Shown here: positions 1-38,503 of the stretch, piece after piece
Position numbering within the stretch: the stretch's first letter is position 1
Layout: the number at the start of each line of letters is the position of its first letter
DNA from: Gammaproteobacteria bacterium
GTDB lineage: Bacteria; Pseudomonadota; Gammaproteobacteria; UWMA-0217
NCBI GenBank assembly: GCA_026981985.1
Contig: JALSHZ010000093.1
Coordinates: 1-56,725, forward strand
Direction of reading: 5' to 3'
DNA: 56,725 nucleotides
Notes under the pieces: model-generated
What the model was told of the DNA's origin: nothing
Databases searched by the model: none
The model's input: only the letters and a program-made list of their open reading frames with translations
Position numbers and translations under genes: made by a program

Positions 1-214
1 CTATAGAATGATGATGCTTCTGAGGCAGGGGTTTGAAGCTAATCCCTGGATTGCCGAAAAAGCAGGAAAAATACGCAAAAACCCTGTCAAGCTTTTTTTA
101 TGGTTTTTTTGCGCTGAGTAGTTACAATTGACTCCGGGTATTCGCGCATCGATTCCGGTTTCATAGTGCTTCCTGTCTGATTAAACAAGGCGGGGCAACC
201 GGAGATAAGAACAA
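1..214. other. intergenic region upstream of the chemoreceptor, with a lone MITE terminus
   Basis: No gene is visible. Bases 113-125 read GCTGAGTAGTTAC, the exact 13-bp right terminus of the MITE described at 15849-15989, but the sequence to its left does not resemble the element interior and no partner terminus is present in the window. It is most simply a remnant or the end of a diverged relative. GGAG at 201-204 is the ribosome binding site for the gene starting at 215. Confidence 0.5.
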
Positions 215-15769: not shown

Positions 15770-15848
15770 GCCGCCGGTTTATAGTCGCGGCGTCACACCC
15801 ATCAGAGATACTTGGCAAAGTGGGGGGGCAAGGTTATATTCGGCCTCA

Positions 15849-15989
15849 GTAACTACTCAGCTTACCCCCTGTGTGCGCCAACTCTGCGTTGGAAGTGCTC
15901 ATTTACACTTGTAAACTGCGCGCTTCCGCCTTGATTTGACGCAAAACGGGGGCAATCTGAGCAGTTACGAGACTGTGCTGAGTAGTTAC
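15849..15989. mobile_element. MITE-like element, copy 1 (141 bp)
   Basis: Perfect 13-bp terminal inverted repeats GTAACTACTCAGC (15849-15861) and GCTGAGTAGTTAC (15977-15989) bound a palindromic interior. An 8-bp direct repeat CGGCCTCA flanks it at 15841-15848 and 15990-15997, as expected for a target-site duplication. The centre (15891-15927) forms an imperfect hairpin with stem GGAAGTGC / GCGCTTCC. No coding capacity, so any movement needs a transposase supplied elsewhere. It ends 69 bp before the leuA start. Confidence 0.88.
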
Positions 15990-16058
15990 CGGCCTCATTG
16001 ACAGGGCGGTATGCGCCCTGCCGTCGCCACTCCAATCAAGCCGCCGCGAGACCTCCCA

Positions 16059-17600
16059 ATGAGCAAGGAACACCTGATTATTTTCGATACGACGCTGCGT
16101 GATGGCGAGCAGAGCCCTGGCGCGTCGATGACGAAAGACGAAAAGGTGCGCATTGCACGGGCACTGGAAAAGATGCAGGTCGACATCATCGAGGCTGGTT
16201 TTCCAATCGCCAGCCCGGGGGACTTCGAGGCCGTGCAAGCGGTTGCCGCTGCGGTGAAAGACAGCACGATCTGCGGGCTGGCGCGCGCGCTGGACAAGGA
16301 TATCGAGCGTGCTGGTGAGGCGCTCAAACCGGCGCAGTCAGCGCGCATTCACACCTTTCTTGCCACCTCGCCAATCCACATGCGCGAGAAGCTGCGGATG
16401 ACGCCCGGCGAGGTGGTCGAAAACGCTGTCAAGGCCGTGAAGAAGGCGCGCCAGTTCACGGATGATGTCGAGTTTTCACCGGAGGACGCCGGGCGCTCCG
16501 AAGTGGATTTTCTCTGCCGGGTGATCGAAAGCGTCATCAATGCCGGCGCCACGACGATCAATATCCCGGATACCGTTGGTTACAATATCCCGCACCAGTT
16601 CGGTCAGCTGATCCGCACCCTGATCGAGCGTATTCCCAATGCCGACAAGGCGGTGTTTTCAGTGCACTGCCATAATGATCTCGGTTTGGCGGTGGCCAAC
16701 TCCCTGGCTGCGGTTCGCAACGGAGCCCGCCAGGTAGAGTGCACCATCAATGGCCTGGGCGAACGCGCCGGTAATGCCGCACTGGAAGAGGTGGTGATGG
16801 CGGTGCGCACCCGTCAGGATGTGTTCGACTGCAATACGCGGCTCGATACCACCCAGATCGTGCCTTGCTCGCGCCTGGTATCGAGCATTACCGGTTTTCC
16901 GGTGCAGCCCAACAAGGCCATTGTCGGCGCCAACGCGTTTGCCCACGAGTCGGGTATCCACCAGGATGGTGTGCTGAAATCGCGCGAGACCTACGAAATC
17001 ATGCGGGCAGAGGACGTCGGCTGGAGCGAGAATCATATTGTTCTCGGCAAGCATTCAGGCCGAAATGCGCTGCGTGCACGTTTTCGCGATTTGGGGATTG
17101 AATTCGATTCTGAGGAAGCCCTCAATGCTGTTTTCGTTCGTTTCAAGGAACTCGCTGATCGCAAGCACGAGATCTATGATGAAGATCTGCAGGCACTGGT
17201 CAGCGCCGCAGCGGACGAGCCCGAGACCTACAAGCTGGTCTATTTGAGTGTTACCTCGGAGACTGGCGAAAAACCGCTCGCGCGGGTCACGCTCAACGTC
17301 AATGGTGAGGAACATTCCAGCGAGGCCATTGGCGGTGGACCGGTCGATGCGGCGCTAAAAGCCATCGAGGAAATTGTCGGCAGCGACAGTCAGCTGAAGC
17401 TTTACTCCGTCAACAACATCACCAGCGGCACCGATGCCCAGGGCGAGGTCACGGTCAGACTGGAAAAGGATGGCCGCATCGTCAATGGCCAGGGTGCTGA
17501 TACCGATATCGTCATTGCGTCGGCCAAAGCCTACCTCAATGCCTTGAACAAACTGCTTTCCCCACGTTTGACGTCGCATCCGCAACACGGGTCGGTATGA
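16059..17600 (+). CDS. leuA: 2-isopropylmalate synthase
   Basis: Catalyses the first committed step of leucine synthesis, condensing acetyl-CoA with 2-oxoisovalerate. The 513-residue protein begins [20 protein letters not shown], as in E. coli LeuA, with the HMGL-like barrel ([48 protein letters not shown]) and the C-terminal allosteric domain that binds leucine (from about residue 390). An in-frame ATG at 16011 would add 16 residues unlike the family, so 16059 is preferred although its ribosome binding site is weak. No leader peptide with a leucine run was seen upstream; a MITE occupies that position. Its stop overlaps the next gene by ATGA. Confidence 0.97.
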
Positions 17601-22094: not shown

Positions 22095-22379
22095 GGGCGG
22101 GTTTCCACGGGAGCAGGGGCTAGATACATAAAAGTTTAATAAAACAGTGAGTTATGTTCAATATTATAGGTTGTATCTAGTCTCCGCCATAGTTTTTGTC
22201 ACAGTTTGGTTCGAATTACTTGGCGGATTTTGTCACACGATTGTGTGGCGAGCGTAGTGTGTGCCATGCTGGGGCCAGTGGCACGCTGGTGAGAACTGCC
22301 ATTCAGTTTGCCGCCATCTGGTATACGACAAGAGGTGTTGATTTTCCGTTCCGGCAGAATTACGGCATACTGTTGCCCA
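22095..22379. other. divergent intergenic region between the YbhN-like gene and the copper efflux operon
   Basis: An AT-rich stretch at about 22128-22185 could hold promoters for either side, but no pair of boxes is convincing. I did not find a clear CueR- or CusR-type operator palindrome. No gene is visible. Confidence 0.35.
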
Positions 22380-32196: not shown

Positions 32197-32230
32197 ATTC
32201 TTGACTGTTTTACTTGGTTATTGCTAGACT
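32197..32230 (+). promoter_or_regulatory. iscR promoter with IscR type 1 binding site
   Basis: Bases 32197-32221 match the 25-bp consensus I remember for the E. coli type 1 IscR site at about 21 positions, with the core TTGACTG and GGTTAT. TTGACT (32201-32206) doubles as the -35 box, and TAGACT (32225-32230) is a plausible -10 after 18 bp. The position, overlapping the -35 box as in E. coli, suggests autorepression by [2Fe-2S]-IscR. Confidence 0.75.
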
Positions 32231-32283: not shown

Positions 32284-32760
32284 ATGAAGCTTTCAACAAA
32301 GGGTCGTTACGCGGTAACGGCAATGATGGATCTGGCGATCCACGATCGCGAAGGTCCGGTAACACTGGCAGATATTTCACAGACGCAGGGAATCTCCCTG
32401 TCCTATCTCGAACAACTGTTCGCCAAGCTGCGCAAGCGCGGGCTGGTCGAGGGGGTTCGTGGTCCTGGCGGCGGCTATCGTCTGGCACGCATGCCGCACC
32501 AGATCACTGTCGCTGAGATCATCACCGCCGTTGACGAGAATGTCGATGTCATGCGCTGTCATGGTGATGGCAATTGTCAGGACGGCGTGCGCTGTCTCAC
32601 CCACGAGCTGTGGGCGGAGCTCAGCAACCGCTTGTACGAATTTCTGGACGGCATCACGCTGGATCAGTTCGTCGAGCGCCCCGAAATCCGGGAAATCGCC
32701 CGACGCCAGGATGAAGAGGCGAAGCGTATGAATTTCGTCTTCCCGCGTCCAGCAGCCTAG
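32284..32760 (+). CDS. iscR: Fe-S cluster-sensing transcriptional regulator IscR
   Basis: Rrf2-family regulator of 158 residues. The winged helix-turn-helix starts [18 protein letters not shown] and includes [19 protein letters not shown]. Ligands for a [2Fe-2S] cluster, C92, C98, C104 and H107, are at exactly the E. coli positions. The ATG at 32284 has GAGGAG nearby upstream. It is the first gene of the isc operon, 14 bp before iscS, and should repress its own promoter when Fe-S supply is adequate. Confidence 0.98.
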
Positions 32761-32774
32761 CCCAGGAGAATGTC

Positions 32775-33995
32775 ATGTCCGTAAAGCTCCCGATTTATCT
32801 CGATTACAGCGCCACTACGCCGGTGGATGAGCGCGTCGCGGAAAAAATGTCCGAATGCCTCACCATCGACGGTGTCTTTGGCAATCCGGCATCACGCAGC
32901 CATGCGTTCGGCTGGGCAGCAGATGAGAAGGTGGAAAACGCGCGTAAGCAGGTGGCCGAGCTGATCAACGCGAACCCGAAAGAGATCGTGTGGACCAGTG
33001 GTGCCACCGAAAGCGACAACCTTGCGATCAAGGGGGCTGCCCATTTCTATCGCAAGAAAGGACAGCACATCATCACCTGTAAGACCGAACACAAGGCAGT
33101 GCTCGATACCTGTCGCCAGCTCGAACGCGAAGGCTATGAGGTGACTTACCTCGATCCCGAGGAAGATGGTCTCGTCGATCTCGCCCAGCTCGAAGCGGCG
33201 ATGCGTGACGACACCATTCTGGTTTCGATCATGCACGTCAACAACGAAATTGGCGTGATTCAGGATATCGAGGCAATCGGCGAACTGTGCCGTGATCGCG
33301 GTATTGTCTTTCACGTCGATGCAGCTCAGAGCGCCGGCAAGGTGCCGATTGATCTGGACAAGCTCAAGGTGGATCTGATGAGCTTTTCCGCGCACAAGAT
33401 TTACGGTCCCAAAGGCGTTGGTGCCTTATTCGTGCGCCGTCGGCCACGGGTGCGTATCGAAGCGCAAATGCATGGTGGCGGTCATGAGCGCGGCATGCGT
33501 TCCGGCACCTTGGCGACGCATCAGTGTGTTGGCATGGGCGAAGCGTTCCGCATCGCGGGCGAAGAAATGGCGGCTGAAAATGCGCGCATTCTGACGCTGC
33601 GCAAACGTCTTTGGGATGGTTTCAAGGATATGGAAGAGGTCTATCTCAACGGTCATGAGGAGCAGCGTGTTGCGGGCAACCTCAACGTCAGCTTCAACTT
33701 CGTCGAGGGCGAAAGCCTGATCATGGCGCTGAAAGATCTGGCCGTATCCAGTGGCTCGGCCTGCACCTCGGCATCGCTGGAGCCAAGCTACGTCCTGCGG
33801 GCTATTGGCCGTGATGACGAGCTGGCGCATTCCTCGATCCGGTTTACGATCGGTCGTTACACGACGGCTGAAGAAATTGAATACACCATTGCCAAGATGC
33901 GCGATGCCATTACCAAACTCCGTGATCTTTCCCCGCTATGGGAAATGTATCAGGATGGTGTCGACCTGAAGTCCATCCAATGGGCTGCGCACTGA
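32775..33995 (+). CDS. iscS: cysteine desulfurase IscS
   Basis: PLP enzyme that takes sulfur from cysteine and passes it to IscU and tRNA-modifying enzymes (406 residues). It starts [21 protein letters not shown]; the PLP lysine is K208 in [12 protein letters not shown], and the persulfide cysteine is C330 in the mobile loop [14 protein letters not shown]. The C-terminal part that binds IscU ([17 protein letters not shown]) is present. AGGAG six bases upstream supports the start. Second gene of the operon. Confidence 0.98.
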
Positions 33996-34060: not shown

Positions 34061-34447
34061 ATGTCATATAGCGAAAAGGTAATCGACCACTACGAGAATC
34101 CACGCAACGTCGGCGTACTCGACAAGGACTCCAGTGCTGTCGGCACCGGCATGGTTGGTGCGCCAGCCTGTGGCGATGTGATGCGCCTGCAGATCAAGGT
34201 CGGCGACGACGGCGTCATCGAAGACGCGAAATTCAAGACTTATGGTTGCGGCAGCGCCATTGCTTCCAGTAGCCTGCTGACCGAATGGGTCAAGGGTAAA
34301 ACCCTGGAAGAGGCGTCTCAGATCAAGAATTCCGATATTGCTGAAGAGCTGGCCTTGCCCCCGGTCAAGGTGCACTGTTCAGTCTTGGCGGAAGATGCGA
34401 TCAAAGCCGCGATCGAAGATTATCAAGGCAAGCAAAGCGACGCCTGA
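34061..34447 (+). CDS. iscU: Fe-S cluster assembly scaffold IscU
   Basis: Scaffold on which [2Fe-2S] clusters are built (128 residues). Ligands C37, C63 and C106, with D39 and H105, are at E. coli positions, and the LPPVK motif (residues 99-103) recognised by HscA precedes C106. It lies 65 bp after iscS and 24 bp before iscA. Confidence 0.98.
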   Translation: MSYSEKVIDHYENPRNVGVLDKDSSAVGTGMVGAPACGDVMRLQIKVGDDGVIEDAKFKTYGCGSAIASSSLLTEWVKGKTLEEASQIKNSDIAEELALPPVKVHCSVLAEDAIKAAIEDYQGKQSDA

Positions 34448-34471: not shown

Positions 34472-34795
34472 ATGGCGATAACACTGACCGATGCCGCCGC
34501 CGACCGGGTCAAGAACTTCCTTGAAAAAAGGGGTTCTGGTGCTGGCCTGCGGCTGGGGGTGAAAACCACAGGCTGCTCGGGCATGGCCTACGTGATCGAG
34601 TTTGCCGACGAGATCGAAGAGCACGATACGGTGTTTGAAGACAAGGGCGTCAAGATCATCGTCAATCCCAAGAGTCTCACCTATCTCGACGGCACCGAGC
34701 TGGATTTCGCCCGTGAAGGCTTGAACGAGGGGTTCAAGTTCAACAACCCCAATGAAGCCGATCGCTGTGGCTGCGGTGAGAGCTTTACTGTCTGA
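34472..34795 (+). CDS. iscA: A-type Fe-S carrier IscA
   Basis: A-type carrier of 107 residues that passes clusters to target proteins. The three ligand cysteines are C35 (TTGCSGMAY), C99 and C101 ([10 protein letters not shown]), as in E. coli IscA. It is the last gene before a strong terminator and a MITE, which separate it from hscB by 304 bp. Confidence 0.98.
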
Positions 34796-34892
34796 TTTGG
34801 GAGGCAGTGCTTTTCCGATCCAGGTCCTGATGATCGTGCTGGCAAATTTCCGAAAATAATGGTGCCCTGATCTTGCATGACGCATCAAACGT

Positions 34893-34925
34893 CGAAAAGC
34901 CGGCTGACGCCGGCTTTTCGTTTTT
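34893..34925 (+). terminator. Rho-independent terminator inside the isc operon
   Basis: A perfect 12-bp stem, CGAAAAGCCGGC / GCCGGCTTTTCG with loop TGAC, runs into TTTTT. It lies 97 bp after iscA and before the MITE and hscB, so most transcripts from the iscR promoter should stop here unless read-through or processing occurs. Confidence 0.9.
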
Positions 34926-34930
34926 AAACC

Positions 34931-35072
34931 GTAACTACTCAGCACAGGCCCGTAATTGCTCAGATTGCCCCCGTTTTGCGTCAAATCAAGGCGGAAGCGC
35001 GGAGTTTACGAGTGTAAATGAGCACTTCCAACGCAGAGTTGGCGCAAATAAGGGGGTAAGCTGAGCAGTTAC
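34931..35072. mobile_element. MITE-like element, copy 3 (142 bp, inverted)
   Basis: Opposite orientation to copies 1 and 2. Left end GTAACTACTCAGC, then a second internal terminus GTAATTGCTCAG as in the mirror image of copy 1; right end GCTGAGCAGTTAC. The central hairpin lies at 34993-35029 with stem GGAAG / CTTCC. Flanking octamers TTTAAACC (34923-34930) and TTCAAATC (35073-35080) agree at six of eight positions, consistent with a decayed target duplication. It ends 27 bp before the hscB start, so it must supply or replace part of that gene's upstream region. The rest of the 34796-35099 gap holds only the terminator. Confidence 0.87.
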
Positions 35073-35099
35073 TTCAAATCGAGCCTGTTTTTTAATGCT

Positions 35100-35642
35100 A
35101 TGGCGATTGACCTGACCGAAAACTATTTCGATCTCTTTTCACTGCCGCTGGATTTCGATATCGACGTTGATGCGTTGGGCAGAAAATACCGCAGCTTGCA
35201 GCAAGAGGTGCATCCAGACCGATTTGCCGCTTCTGATGCACAGGCGCAGCGAGTATCGGTCCAGAGCACGGCGCATCTGAATGAAGCTTACGAAACGCTG
35301 AAAGATCCCCTGACGCGCGGTTTCTATCTGCTTGAACTCAAGGGTATTGGTTCGGGCGCGCATGAATACACGACGTCGGATGGTGCTTTTCTGATGCAGC
35401 AGCTGGAACGTCGTGAAGAACTGGAGGGTATTGGGCAGGCTGATGATCCTTTCGATGCACTTGATGCGCTGCGTGATGAGACGCATCGGGACGAACAGGC
35501 GCAGATGGAAACGTTTCGCACAGCCTGGGCTGCGGGTGACTACGACACTGCGTATGATGCGCTCACCAAGGTGATGTTCATTCGCCGCATGCTACAGCAG
35601 ATCGATGAAATCGAAGAGCGTCTCGAAGACGAGTTGGACTGA
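35100..35642 (+). CDS. hscB: Fe-S co-chaperone HscB
   Basis: J-domain protein of 180 residues that delivers IscU to HscA. The N-terminal J domain has HPD at residues 38-40 (EVHPDRFA), and the C-terminal three-helix bundle that holds IscU follows (from about residue 85). There is no strong ribosome binding site before the ATG; TTTAAT just upstream could be a -10 box but lies very close to the start. A MITE ends 27 bp upstream. Confidence 0.96.
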   Translation: MAIDLTENYFDLFSLPLDFDIDVDALGRKYRSLQQEVHPDRFAASDAQAQRVSVQSTAHLNEAYETLKDPLTRGFYLLELKGIGSGAHEYTTSDGAFLMQQLERREELEGIGQADDPFDALDALRDETHRDEQAQMETFRTAWAAGDYDTAYDALTKVMFIRRMLQQIDEIEERLEDELD

Positions 35643-35668: not shown

Positions 35669-37543
35669 ATGGCATTGTTACAAATTTCCGAACCGGGCAT
35701 GTCCGCAGCGCCGCATCAGCGCAGACTGGCGGCCGGCATTGATCTGGGAACAACGAATTCACTGGTCGCGTCGGTGCGCAGTGGCGTGGCTGAAACGCTG
35801 CCGGATGAACAGGGGCGTCATCTGCTGCCTTCGGTGGTCTATTACCGCGAGGATGGCCCGCCGCTGGTGGGCTATGAAGCGCTGGAGAAGGCTGACGAAG
35901 ATCCTTTCAATACCATCGCATCGGTCAAGCGCCTGATGGGGCGTAGCGCCGGTGACCTGAAAAAGCTCGGTGGCCAGCTTTCCTATCGCATCGCCGATGT
36001 CGATAGCAATGTGCCGCGCATCGTCACCGCTGCGGGTGAAAAAACAGCGGTCGAGGTGTCGGCAGATATCCTTGTTGCCCTCAAGCAGCGTGCCGAAGAA
36101 ACACTCGGGGCCGAACTCGAAGGCGTCGTCATCACGGTGCCGGCGTATTTCGATGATGCCCAGCGTCAGGCCACCAAGGACGCGGCGCGTCTGGCGGGTC
36201 TGAATGTACTGCGGCTGCTCAATGAGCCGACGGCTGCTGCTGTGGCCTACGGCTTGGAAAGTGGTGAAGAGGGGGTTATCGCCGTTTACGACCTGGGTGG
36301 CGGCACCTTTGATATTTCGATTCTGCGGCTGCACAAGGGCGTTTTCGAGGTGCTGGCCACCGGCGGTGATTCCGCGTTGGGTGGCGATGATCTGGACCAT
36401 GCGATCGCCGAATGGATGTTGTCATCGGCGGGTATCGAGTCTTCCGACGATCACCATCTGATGCGGCGTTTCATGACCGCTGCGCGCAAGGCGAAGGAGG
36501 CCTTGACCGACGCTGACAGAACGGAAATCGAGGTTGAGCTGGCGGACGGCAAACATTGGCGTGCTGAGCTGACGCGAGCGCGATTTGCCGAACTGATTCG
36601 TCCATTGGTGAAGAAGACGACCGGTGCCTGTCGGCGCGTGCTGCGCGATGCGGGCATCAAGAAGGACGAGGTTCGCGAAGTCGTTATGGTTGGTGGTTCC
36701 ACCCGGGTGCCGCTGGTGCGGGAAATGGTCGGAGAATTCTTTGGACGCGAACCGCTGGTCAGCATCGATCCTGACAAGGTGGTCGCCGTGGGTGCCGCCA
36801 TTCAGGCCGATGTGCTGGTTGGCAACAAACCCGATGGCGATCTGTTGCTGCTTGATGTCATTCCGCTGTCGCTGGGTATCGAGACCATGGGTGGATTGGT
36901 GGAAAAGATCATCAGCCGCAACACCACTATCCCGGTGGCGCGCGCCCAGGAGTTCACCACCTACAAGGATGGTCAGACTGCGATGTCCTTCCATGTGGTG
37001 CAGGGCGAACGCGAGCTGGTGGATGACAATCGCTCGTTGGCCCGCTTCGAGCTGCGTGGCATACCACCAATGGTCGCTGGTGCGGCGCGCATCAAGGTGA
37101 CATTTCAGGTCGACGCGGATGGTCTGCTGAATGTATCAGCGATGGAGGAGACCAGCGGTGCCCAGGCATCGATCACCATTAAGCCCTCCTACGGGCTGGG
37201 CGACAAGGAGATCGAAGCAATGTTGCGCGATTCGATGGAGCATGCGCAGGAGGACATGACGTTGCGTATGCTGCGCGAGCAGCAGGTGGAGGCCGATCGC
37301 GTCGTCGAGGCGCTGGATGCAGCACTGGCAAAGGATGGCGATGAATTGCTGTCAGCAGATGAGAAAGCAGACATCCTTGCAGCGCGCGATGCGCTCATCG
37401 TGGCGCGCCAGGGCGAAGATACGAACGCGATCAAGCATGCGATCAAGCAGGTCGAAGCGGCCGCCGAAAGTTATGTCGAGCGGCGCATGAATTCCAACAT
37501 CCGCCAGGCGATGGCGGGTCATAGTGTAGAAGAGTTTGAGTAA
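35669..37543 (+). CDS. hscA: Fe-S protein assembly chaperone HscA
   Basis: Hsp70-class chaperone specialised for IscU (624 residues). It begins [20 protein letters not shown], almost identical to E. coli HscA, then [17 protein letters not shown]. The ATPase domain contains [16 protein letters not shown] and [14 protein letters not shown]; the substrate-binding domain starts near [18 protein letters not shown]. It follows hscB by 26 bp and precedes fdx by six. Confidence 0.98.
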
Positions 37544-37549
37544 ACTGAT

Positions 37550-37888
37550 ATGCCAAAACTGATTTTCTTGCCCCACGAAGAGCTGTGCCCTGAGGGCAGC
37601 GTGATCGACGTTGAGCCTGGCGTCACCATCTGTGATGCTGCACTGGAGCACGGTATCGAAATCGAACATGCCTGTGAGAAATCCTGTGCCTGCACCACTT
37701 GTCATGTCTATGTGCGTGAGGGGTTCGATTCCTTGAATGAAGCCAGTGATGACGAAGAAGACATGCTGGACAAGGCCTGGGGTGTCGACCCCGACTCCCG
37801 GCTCAGTTGTCAGGCGGTGGTCGATAACGAGGATCTCGTCATCGAGATCCCGAAATACACCATCAATATGGTATCCGAAAGCCACTGA
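37550..37888 (+). CDS. fdx: ISC-type [2Fe-2S] ferredoxin
   Basis: Electron donor for cluster assembly (112 residues). The cluster cysteines C42, C48, C51 and C87 are at E. coli Fdx positions (HACEKSCACTTCHVY and RLSCQAVV). It sits between hscA and iscX with short gaps, as in other gammaproteobacteria. Confidence 0.98.
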   Translation: MPKLIFLPHEELCPEGSVIDVEPGVTICDAALEHGIEIEHACEKSCACTTCHVYVREGFDSLNEASDDEEDMLDKAWGVDPDSRLSCQAVVDNEDLVIEIPKYTINMVSESH

Positions 37889-37902: not shown

Positions 37903-38103
37903 ATGGGTCTGAAGTGGACTGATACACTCGATATCGCGATAGAACTGGACGAAAAATATTCGGATGTCGATCCGTTGAAGGTCAATTTTGTCGATCTTCA
38001 CAAATGGATCACCGAGCTGGATGATTTCGACGATGATCCTGAGCGATCCGGTGAACGCATCCTCGAAGCCATACAGATGGCCTGGATCGAAGAGCGAGAA
38101 TAA
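37903..38103 (+). CDS. iscX: Fe-S assembly protein IscX
   Basis: A 66-residue acidic protein that binds IscS and modulates assembly. It starts MGLKWTDTLDIAIELDEKY and ends LEAIQMAWIEERE, standard for the family. GGAGG lies just upstream of the ATG. Last gene of the isc operon. Confidence 0.96.
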   Translation: MGLKWTDTLDIAIELDEKYSDVDPLKVNFVDLHKWITELDDFDDDPERSGERILEAIQMAWIEERE

Positions 38104-38133: not shown

Positions 38134-38207
38134 TGGAGCGGGTGAAGGGAATCGAACCCTCGTTATCTGCTTGGGAAGCAGAAGTTCTACCATTGAACTA
38201 CACCCGC
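38134..38207 (-). tRNA. tRNA-Gly (anticodon CCC)
   Basis: Read on the minus strand, acceptor GCGGGTG pairs with CACCCGC, the anticodon stem TCTGC/GCAGA encloses TTCCCAA giving anticodon CCC, and the T arm is GGGTTCGATTCCC. The 3' CCA is encoded (38134-38136). It is antisense to the flanking iscX and ndk genes and starts 30 bp past the iscX stop. Confidence 0.95.
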
Positions 38208-38335: not shown

Positions 38336-38445
38336 CAACCCAAGCAAGGCAAAAACCTCCGAGCCCCCCGCAGCACAAGAATCACCCCCAGGTTTGCCAC
38401 AACTGCATGCGGCCAGTAGAATCCGCACACTTTTGATTATCCTTG

Positions 38446-38469
38446 CAAACCCGCGATCCGGCGGGTTTG
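38446..38469 (+). terminator. hairpin upstream of ndk, possible terminator
   Basis: Perfect 9-bp stem CAAACCCGC / GCGGGTTTG with a six-base loop, followed by TGTTATTTT. The T-run is interrupted, so terminator strength is doubtful; it could equally lie in the ndk leader, whose start is 35 bp further on. Confidence 0.5.
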
Positions 38470-38503
38470 TGTTATTTTACTCATTGAAAATCTGGAGTTT
38501 CCT

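What the first reader, a model, noticed from the sequence alone, without database searches (positions are those of the whole stretch)
34796..35102. isc operon cut between iscA and hscB by a terminator and a MITE
Seen: a 12-bp-stem terminator with T-run (34893-34925), then a MITE ending 27 bp before the hscB start. In E. coli iscRSUA-hscBA-fdx is one IscR-controlled transcript. Here hscBA-fdx-iscX would need read-through or its own promoter, possibly inside or created by the MITE, which could free the chaperones from IscR control.
Basis: partly seen in the sequence, partly recalled or inferred. Interest (0 to 1): 0.65.

Follow-up and report, generated by a model that had tools for sequence, protein, structure and literature searches.

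The report
Leaky-looking isc terminator plus passenger MITE
In an uncultured gammaproteobacterium, the iron-sulphur assembly operon has a terminator-like hairpin between its scaffold and chaperone genes that is older than the small mobile element beside it, and a similar hairpin sits at the same junction in E. coli, so this is a mostly ordinary arrangement in which the mobile element is probably just a passenger.

Summary
Between iscA (stop 34795) and hscB (ATG 35100) lie a perfect 12-bp hairpin followed by T5 (34893-34925) and a 142-bp MITE (34931-35072) ending 27 bp before hscB. The MITE belongs to a family with dozens of copies in this genome. Its ends and 8-bp target duplications match the ISBst12 group of IS66 elements. 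(1) The sister species has no MITE here but has the same hairpin core, 26 nt before hscB. Taking the MITE and one duplication out of the window leaves 29 nt. The hairpin is therefore older, and there was no room for an ordinary promoter behind it: hscBA-fdx-iscX was probably already read through. (2) No promoter above chance lies between the hairpin and hscB. The only good promoter is upstream of iscR and overlaps a conserved IscR type-1-like site. (3) E. coli K-12 itself, and some other gammaproteobacteria, carry terminator-like hairpins in the same gap. Most likely reading: a genus-level attenuator lowers chaperone relative to scaffold expression while IscR control continues by read-through, and the MITE is a later passenger. 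No transcript data exist, so read-through is inferred. Low interest; the recurrence of hairpins at this junction is the most useful lead.

The parts
32197..32221 (+). IscR type-1-like site (21 of 25 consensus positions) upstream of iscR
   Evidence: best match in the window; 22 of 25 at the same place in the sister; 10 window shuffles gave none at 21 or more
32201..32230 (+). sigma-70-like promoter of the isc cluster (TTGACT-18-TAGACT with TG before the second hexamer)
   Evidence: score matched by 1 of 200 shuffles; reached in no 180-bp tile of the window
32284..32760 (+). iscR
   Evidence: Pfam Rrf2
32775..33995 (+). iscS
   Evidence: Pfam Aminotran_5
34061..34447 (+). iscU
   Evidence: Pfam NifU_N
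34472..34795 (+). iscA
   Evidence: Pfam Fe-S_biosyn
34893..34925 (+). intrinsic-terminator-like hairpin with T-run; core conserved in the sister species
34923..34930 (+). left copy of the imperfect 8-bp target duplication, TTTAAACC
34931..35072 (+). 142-bp MITE of the IS66/ISBst12 type
35073..35080 (+). right copy of the imperfect 8-bp target duplication, TTCAAATC
35100..35642 (+). hscB
   Evidence: Pfam HSCB_C
35669..37543 (+). hscA
   Evidence: Pfam HSP70
37550..37888 (+). fdx
   Evidence: Pfam Fer2
37903..38103 (+). iscX
   Evidence: Pfam Fe-S_assembly

Best explanation
This is a normal IscR-type isc cluster with one promoter upstream of iscR. A terminator-like hairpin inherited from the ancestor of the genus stands between iscA and hscB. 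It most likely stops part of the polymerases, so iscRSUA RNA is more abundant than hscBA-fdx-iscX RNA, while the chaperone genes remain under IscR control through read-through. A non-autonomous IS66/ISBst12-group element later inserted between the hairpin and hscB. It lengthened the leader by 150 nt and most likely changed little. Shown from sequence: the hairpin, the MITE, their relative age, the promoter with an IscR-like site, and the lack of a better-than-chance promoter between hairpin and hscB. Inferred: partial termination, read-through, and neutrality of the MITE.
For: The sister species (G001, L032/L061) carries the same hairpin core (AAAGCCGGC....GCCGGCTTT + T-run), with no MITE, ending 26 nt before hscB. 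With the MITE and one duplication left out, the window has 29 nt there. That is too little for an ordinary -35/-10 promoter plus leader behind the hairpin. The only strong promoter is at 32201-32230 over an IscR-like site conserved in the sister. The best site between hairpin and hscB is at shuffle level (86 of 200), and no IscR-like site was listed in the gap. E. coli K-12 has a hairpin plus T-rich tail in the same gap, yet genes on both sides rise together about 10-15-fold in PMC6049941. Terminator-like hairpins occur in 13 of 98 iscA-hscB gaps against 1.4 expected from shuffles.
Against: No transcript data exist for this organism. The 12-bp hairpin with T5 looks strong enough to stop most polymerases. 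Promoters of other sigma factors, or promoters inside iscA, are not covered by the scans. Two family-level relatives (G002, G004) have short gaps of 51 and 4 nt without a hairpin, so the hairpin is not ancient. The hairpin core is short and its conservation rests on two species.
Confidence: 0.6

Rival explanations
1. The MITE, or the junction it made with the host DNA, supplies a promoter that transcribes hscBA-fdx-iscX separately and frees it from IscR.
For: The MITE end could give a -35-like GTTACT (35068-35073), 17 bp before a host TTTAAT (35091-35096). The MITE lies exactly between terminator and hscB.
Against: The score is no better than in shuffles (86 of 200) and start sites would fall at about 35102-35104, inside or past the hscB ATG. 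The sister has the hairpin but no MITE and no space for such a promoter, so the genus did without it.
Confidence: 0.1
2. The hairpin and the MITE work on RNA rather than on transcription: the full-length isc transcript is cut or trimmed between iscA and hscB (hairpin as a 3' stabiliser, MITE RNA as an RNase III or endonuclease target), giving the two halves different stability.
For: The read-through RNA of the MITE folds into a long hairpin, -65.2 kcal/mol, z = -7.0. Segmental mRNA stability within isc is known for E. coli iscR versus the rest (RyhB, described in PMC6956336).
Against: Strong folding is expected of any MITE with inverted ends. There is no evidence of processing, and the sister lacks this MITE at the site.
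Confidence: 0.2
3. hscBA-fdx-iscX has its own promoter upstream of, or overlapping, the hairpin (within iscA or the first 100 bp of the gap), independent of the MITE.
For: Internal promoters are common in long operons (general knowledge), and the gap before the hairpin is about 97 bp.
Against: No sigma-70-like site on the + strand between 32230 and hscB in the scan. Such a transcript would still have to pass the hairpin.
Confidence: 0.08

Closest known systems
E. coli K-12 isc cluster (iscRSUA-hscBA-fdx-iscX)
   Same: Gene order; IscR-controlled promoter upstream of iscR; a hairpin with a T-rich tail in the iscA-hscB gap; listed as iscRSUA plus hscBA-fdx-iscX in PMC6049941
   Different: The E. 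coli hairpin is unrelated in sequence, has a 15-nt loop and a weaker tail; the gap is 95 bp with no MITE
ISBst12 group of the IS66 family, such as ISDge4 of Deinococcus geothermalis (PMC12898284)
   Same: Ends GTGACTACTCAGCA and GTAACTGCTCAGCA in ISDge4 against GTAACTACTCAGCA and GTAACTGCTCAGCT here; 8-bp target duplication
   Different: 142 bp without a transposase gene: a non-autonomous derivative (MITE)
iscA-hscB gaps with hairpins in Paraglaciecola, Psychrosphaera and Microbulbifer (L098, L101, L102, L104, L072)
   Same: Terminator-like hairpin in the same junction
   Different: Different sequence and position, no MITE; the differences suggest separate origins

Membership tests
MITE of the IS66/ISBst12 group | Terminal inverted repeats of the group | tested here: met
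   Ends match those printed for ISDge4; 241 genome copies of the 12-bp end motif
MITE of the IS66/ISBst12 group | 8-bp target site duplication | tested here: met
   Met for the family: 23 of 44 parsed copies exact; this copy 6 of 8
MITE of the IS66/ISBst12 group | Short, multi-copy, no transposase gene | tested here: met
   142 bp, dozens of copies; only a chance 63-codon frame crosses it on the + strand
MITE of the IS66/ISBst12 group | Full-length IS66-type partner in the same genome | tested here: inconclusive
   PF03050 not found in the assembly, but about 49 contig-end copies of two IS ends with the same terminus exist; the peptide in one (FCRIRGYLSTCRKQGLSASDALALVFAGKLPHFDLMG) matches plasmid frames up to 73%, one of them annotated IS66 family transposase. 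The body is probably collapsed out of the assembly
Intrinsic terminator | GC-rich stem followed by a T-run | tested here: met
Intrinsic terminator | Stops transcription in vivo or in vitro | not testable with these tools
   needs Term-seq or in vitro transcription
IscR-regulated isc operon | iscR first gene, isc genes in order on one strand | tested here: met
IscR-regulated isc operon | IscR type-1 site at the promoter | tested here: met
   21 of 25 positions at 32197-32221, 22 of 25 in the sister; the strict search with at most 3 mismatches found none, so the site is imperfect
IscR-regulated isc operon | One transcript through to fdx or iscX | not testable with these tools
   no RNA data

The most novel reading that the evidence does not exclude
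Several gammaproteobacterial lineages, E. coli included, have independently placed a leaky intrinsic terminator between iscA and hscB to keep the Hsc chaperones and ferredoxin below the scaffold proteins; this species shows it unusually clearly.
Probability: 0.3. Interest if true: 0.45.

Novelty: new member of a known kind. Interest (0 to 1): 0.22.

Why it matters
If the hairpin is a leaky terminator, the isc operon is a two-tier operon whose chaperone output is set by read-through, in E. coli as well. That is easy to test with existing E. coli RNA data. The MITE itself would matter only if it altered hscB expression, for which there is no evidence.

Tried and rejected
MITE-borne promoter: no site above chance. 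IscR-like site in the iscA-hscB gap: none listed. MITE insertion targeted to terminators: 3 of 44 copies lie within 20 bp of a terminator-like hairpin against 1.2% of control positions; too few to claim. Rfam element in the gap: none, only two tRNAs in the window. Matches of the MITE or of an IS end in plasmid records, and of the gap in phage records: none. One IS-end translation was searched in the wrong frame first (no match). The relaxed IscR pattern was written after seeing the site; searches are the fair tests. A paper on RyhB and iscRSUA was not held.

Full report
What is there. The window holds a complete isc cluster on the + strand: iscR, iscS, iscU, iscA, hscB, hscA, fdx, iscX. The genome is a draft assembly of a gammaproteobacterium (149 contigs, 3.35 Mb). 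Its only same-genus relative held is G001, whose hscB contig position matches JALWKV010000152.1, a 'Gammaproteobacteria bacterium' MAG. The iscA-hscB gap is 304 bp. It contains a perfect 12-bp hairpin with TTTTT (34893-34925; z = -5.2) and a 142-bp repeat (34931-35072) that ends 27 bp before hscB.

What the repeat is. A search of the genome with the gap returned 67 matches, from dozens of copies, many 90-97% identical and 142-143 bp long. The end motif GTAACTRCTCAG occurs 241 times in the genome, 152 times in G001 and 70 times in G003, against 0 to 3 for the reversed control. 23 of 44 parsed copies have perfect 8-bp target duplications. Ends and duplication length match ISDge4, an ISBst12-group IS66 element that has been seen to move (PMC12898284). 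Many contigs of this genome, including the window at its own first bases, break inside IS ends that carry the same terminus. A peptide read from one of those ends matches frames in plasmids, one annotated as IS66 family transposase. No IS66 transposase was found in the assembly itself, most likely because the identical copies collapsed. The element is therefore a MITE of IS66/ISBst12 type. Close copies (90% identity and more) of this subfamily were found only in this genome; the sister has relatives mostly at about 73-78% identity. This copy's duplication has decayed to 6 of 8 (TTTAAACC/TTCAAATC).

Order of events. The sister genome has no MITE in the gap but has a hairpin with the same core (AAAGCCGGC....GCCGGCTTT, T-run) ending 26 nt before hscB. 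Leaving out the MITE and one duplication copy, the window has 29 nt between stem and ATG, and the two junctions align. So the hairpin is older than the MITE. The sister's gap holds another, unrelated short repeat upstream of the hairpin (42 matches in G001, none in G000), so the gap tolerates insertions. Two family-level relatives have gaps of 4 and 51 nt without a hairpin, so the hairpin appears to be a genus-level gain.

Promoters. A sigma-70-like promoter at 32201-32230 upstream of iscR scores well above shuffles (1 of 200) and overlaps an IscR type-1-like site (21 of 25; 22 of 25 in the sister). A strict search for that site with at most 3 mismatches found nothing, so it is imperfect. Between the hairpin and hscB the best promoter-like pair (GTTACT from the MITE end, TTTAAT from the host) is at chance level (86 of 200), and start points would fall in or past the start codon. 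Before the MITE came, only 26-29 nt separated hairpin and hscB, too little for an ordinary promoter with a leader. Hence hscBA-fdx-iscX was most likely transcribed through the hairpin before the insertion, and nothing indicates that this changed.

How ordinary it is. In 98 iscA-hscB gaps, terminator-like hairpins were found in 13 against 1.4 expected from dinucleotide shuffles. The 13 include the window itself and the sister counted twice (L032 and L061 are the same place); leaving out the window and one sister copy it is 11 of 96 against about 1.1. Several are weak (L087, L113, L117, L136). Paraglaciecola, Psychrosphaera, Microbulbifer and E. coli K-12 are clear or fair cases. Gene ends and starts were assigned by motif rules, so gap lengths can be off by a few codons. 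In E. coli K-12 the gap reads AACCCCAC-15 nt-GTGGGGTT-TGTTTT. PMC6049941 lists iscRSUA and hscBA-fdx-iscX as separate operons, yet both rise about 10-15-fold together. Coordinate response across a terminator-like hairpin is what read-through under one promoter would give, though it is not proof.

Conclusion. The finding is real, but its main inference is not supported. The chaperone genes here are probably expressed by read-through of a partial terminator under the IscR-controlled promoter, and the MITE is a later passenger. The step from sequence to partial termination is inferred. An RNA-level role of the hairpin or of the MITE's strong RNA fold (-65.2 kcal/mol) cannot be excluded.

Noticed in passing
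window 1-125: The contig begins inside an IS end (CTGAGTAGTTAC at 114-125) shared almost identically with about 21 other contig ends; a second IS end type marks about 27 further contig ends. A high-copy IS66-type element probably broke this assembly.
   Followed up: partly
window 15848-15989 (- strand): A second copy of the same MITE in the window, with a perfect target duplication CGGCCTCA, just upstream of a leuA-type gene (16011-17600).
   Followed up: partly
L028, L029, L030, L155: Longer MITE variants carry an internal insert (GACGACTCCA..GGATGGAGGAGGTAGGGCGACGCAGGATGC and similar), suggesting nested growth of the family.
   Followed up: no
window 22131-22155: A second IscR-type-1-like palindrome (20 of 25 positions) between a lysylphosphatidylglycerol-synthase-like gene and an outer-membrane efflux gene set; about what one expects by chance once in several windows.
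   Followed up: partly
L032 gap, 1324-1500: The sister's iscA-hscB gap holds a different short interspersed repeat (GTAGGGTGCAT..CATGCACC type, 42 matches in G001, none in G000).
   Followed up: partly
window 38137-38207 (- strand): A tRNA gene on the - strand lies 34 bp after iscX, convergent with the isc cluster; a strong terminator-like hairpin lies at 38444-38471 (+).
   Followed up: no
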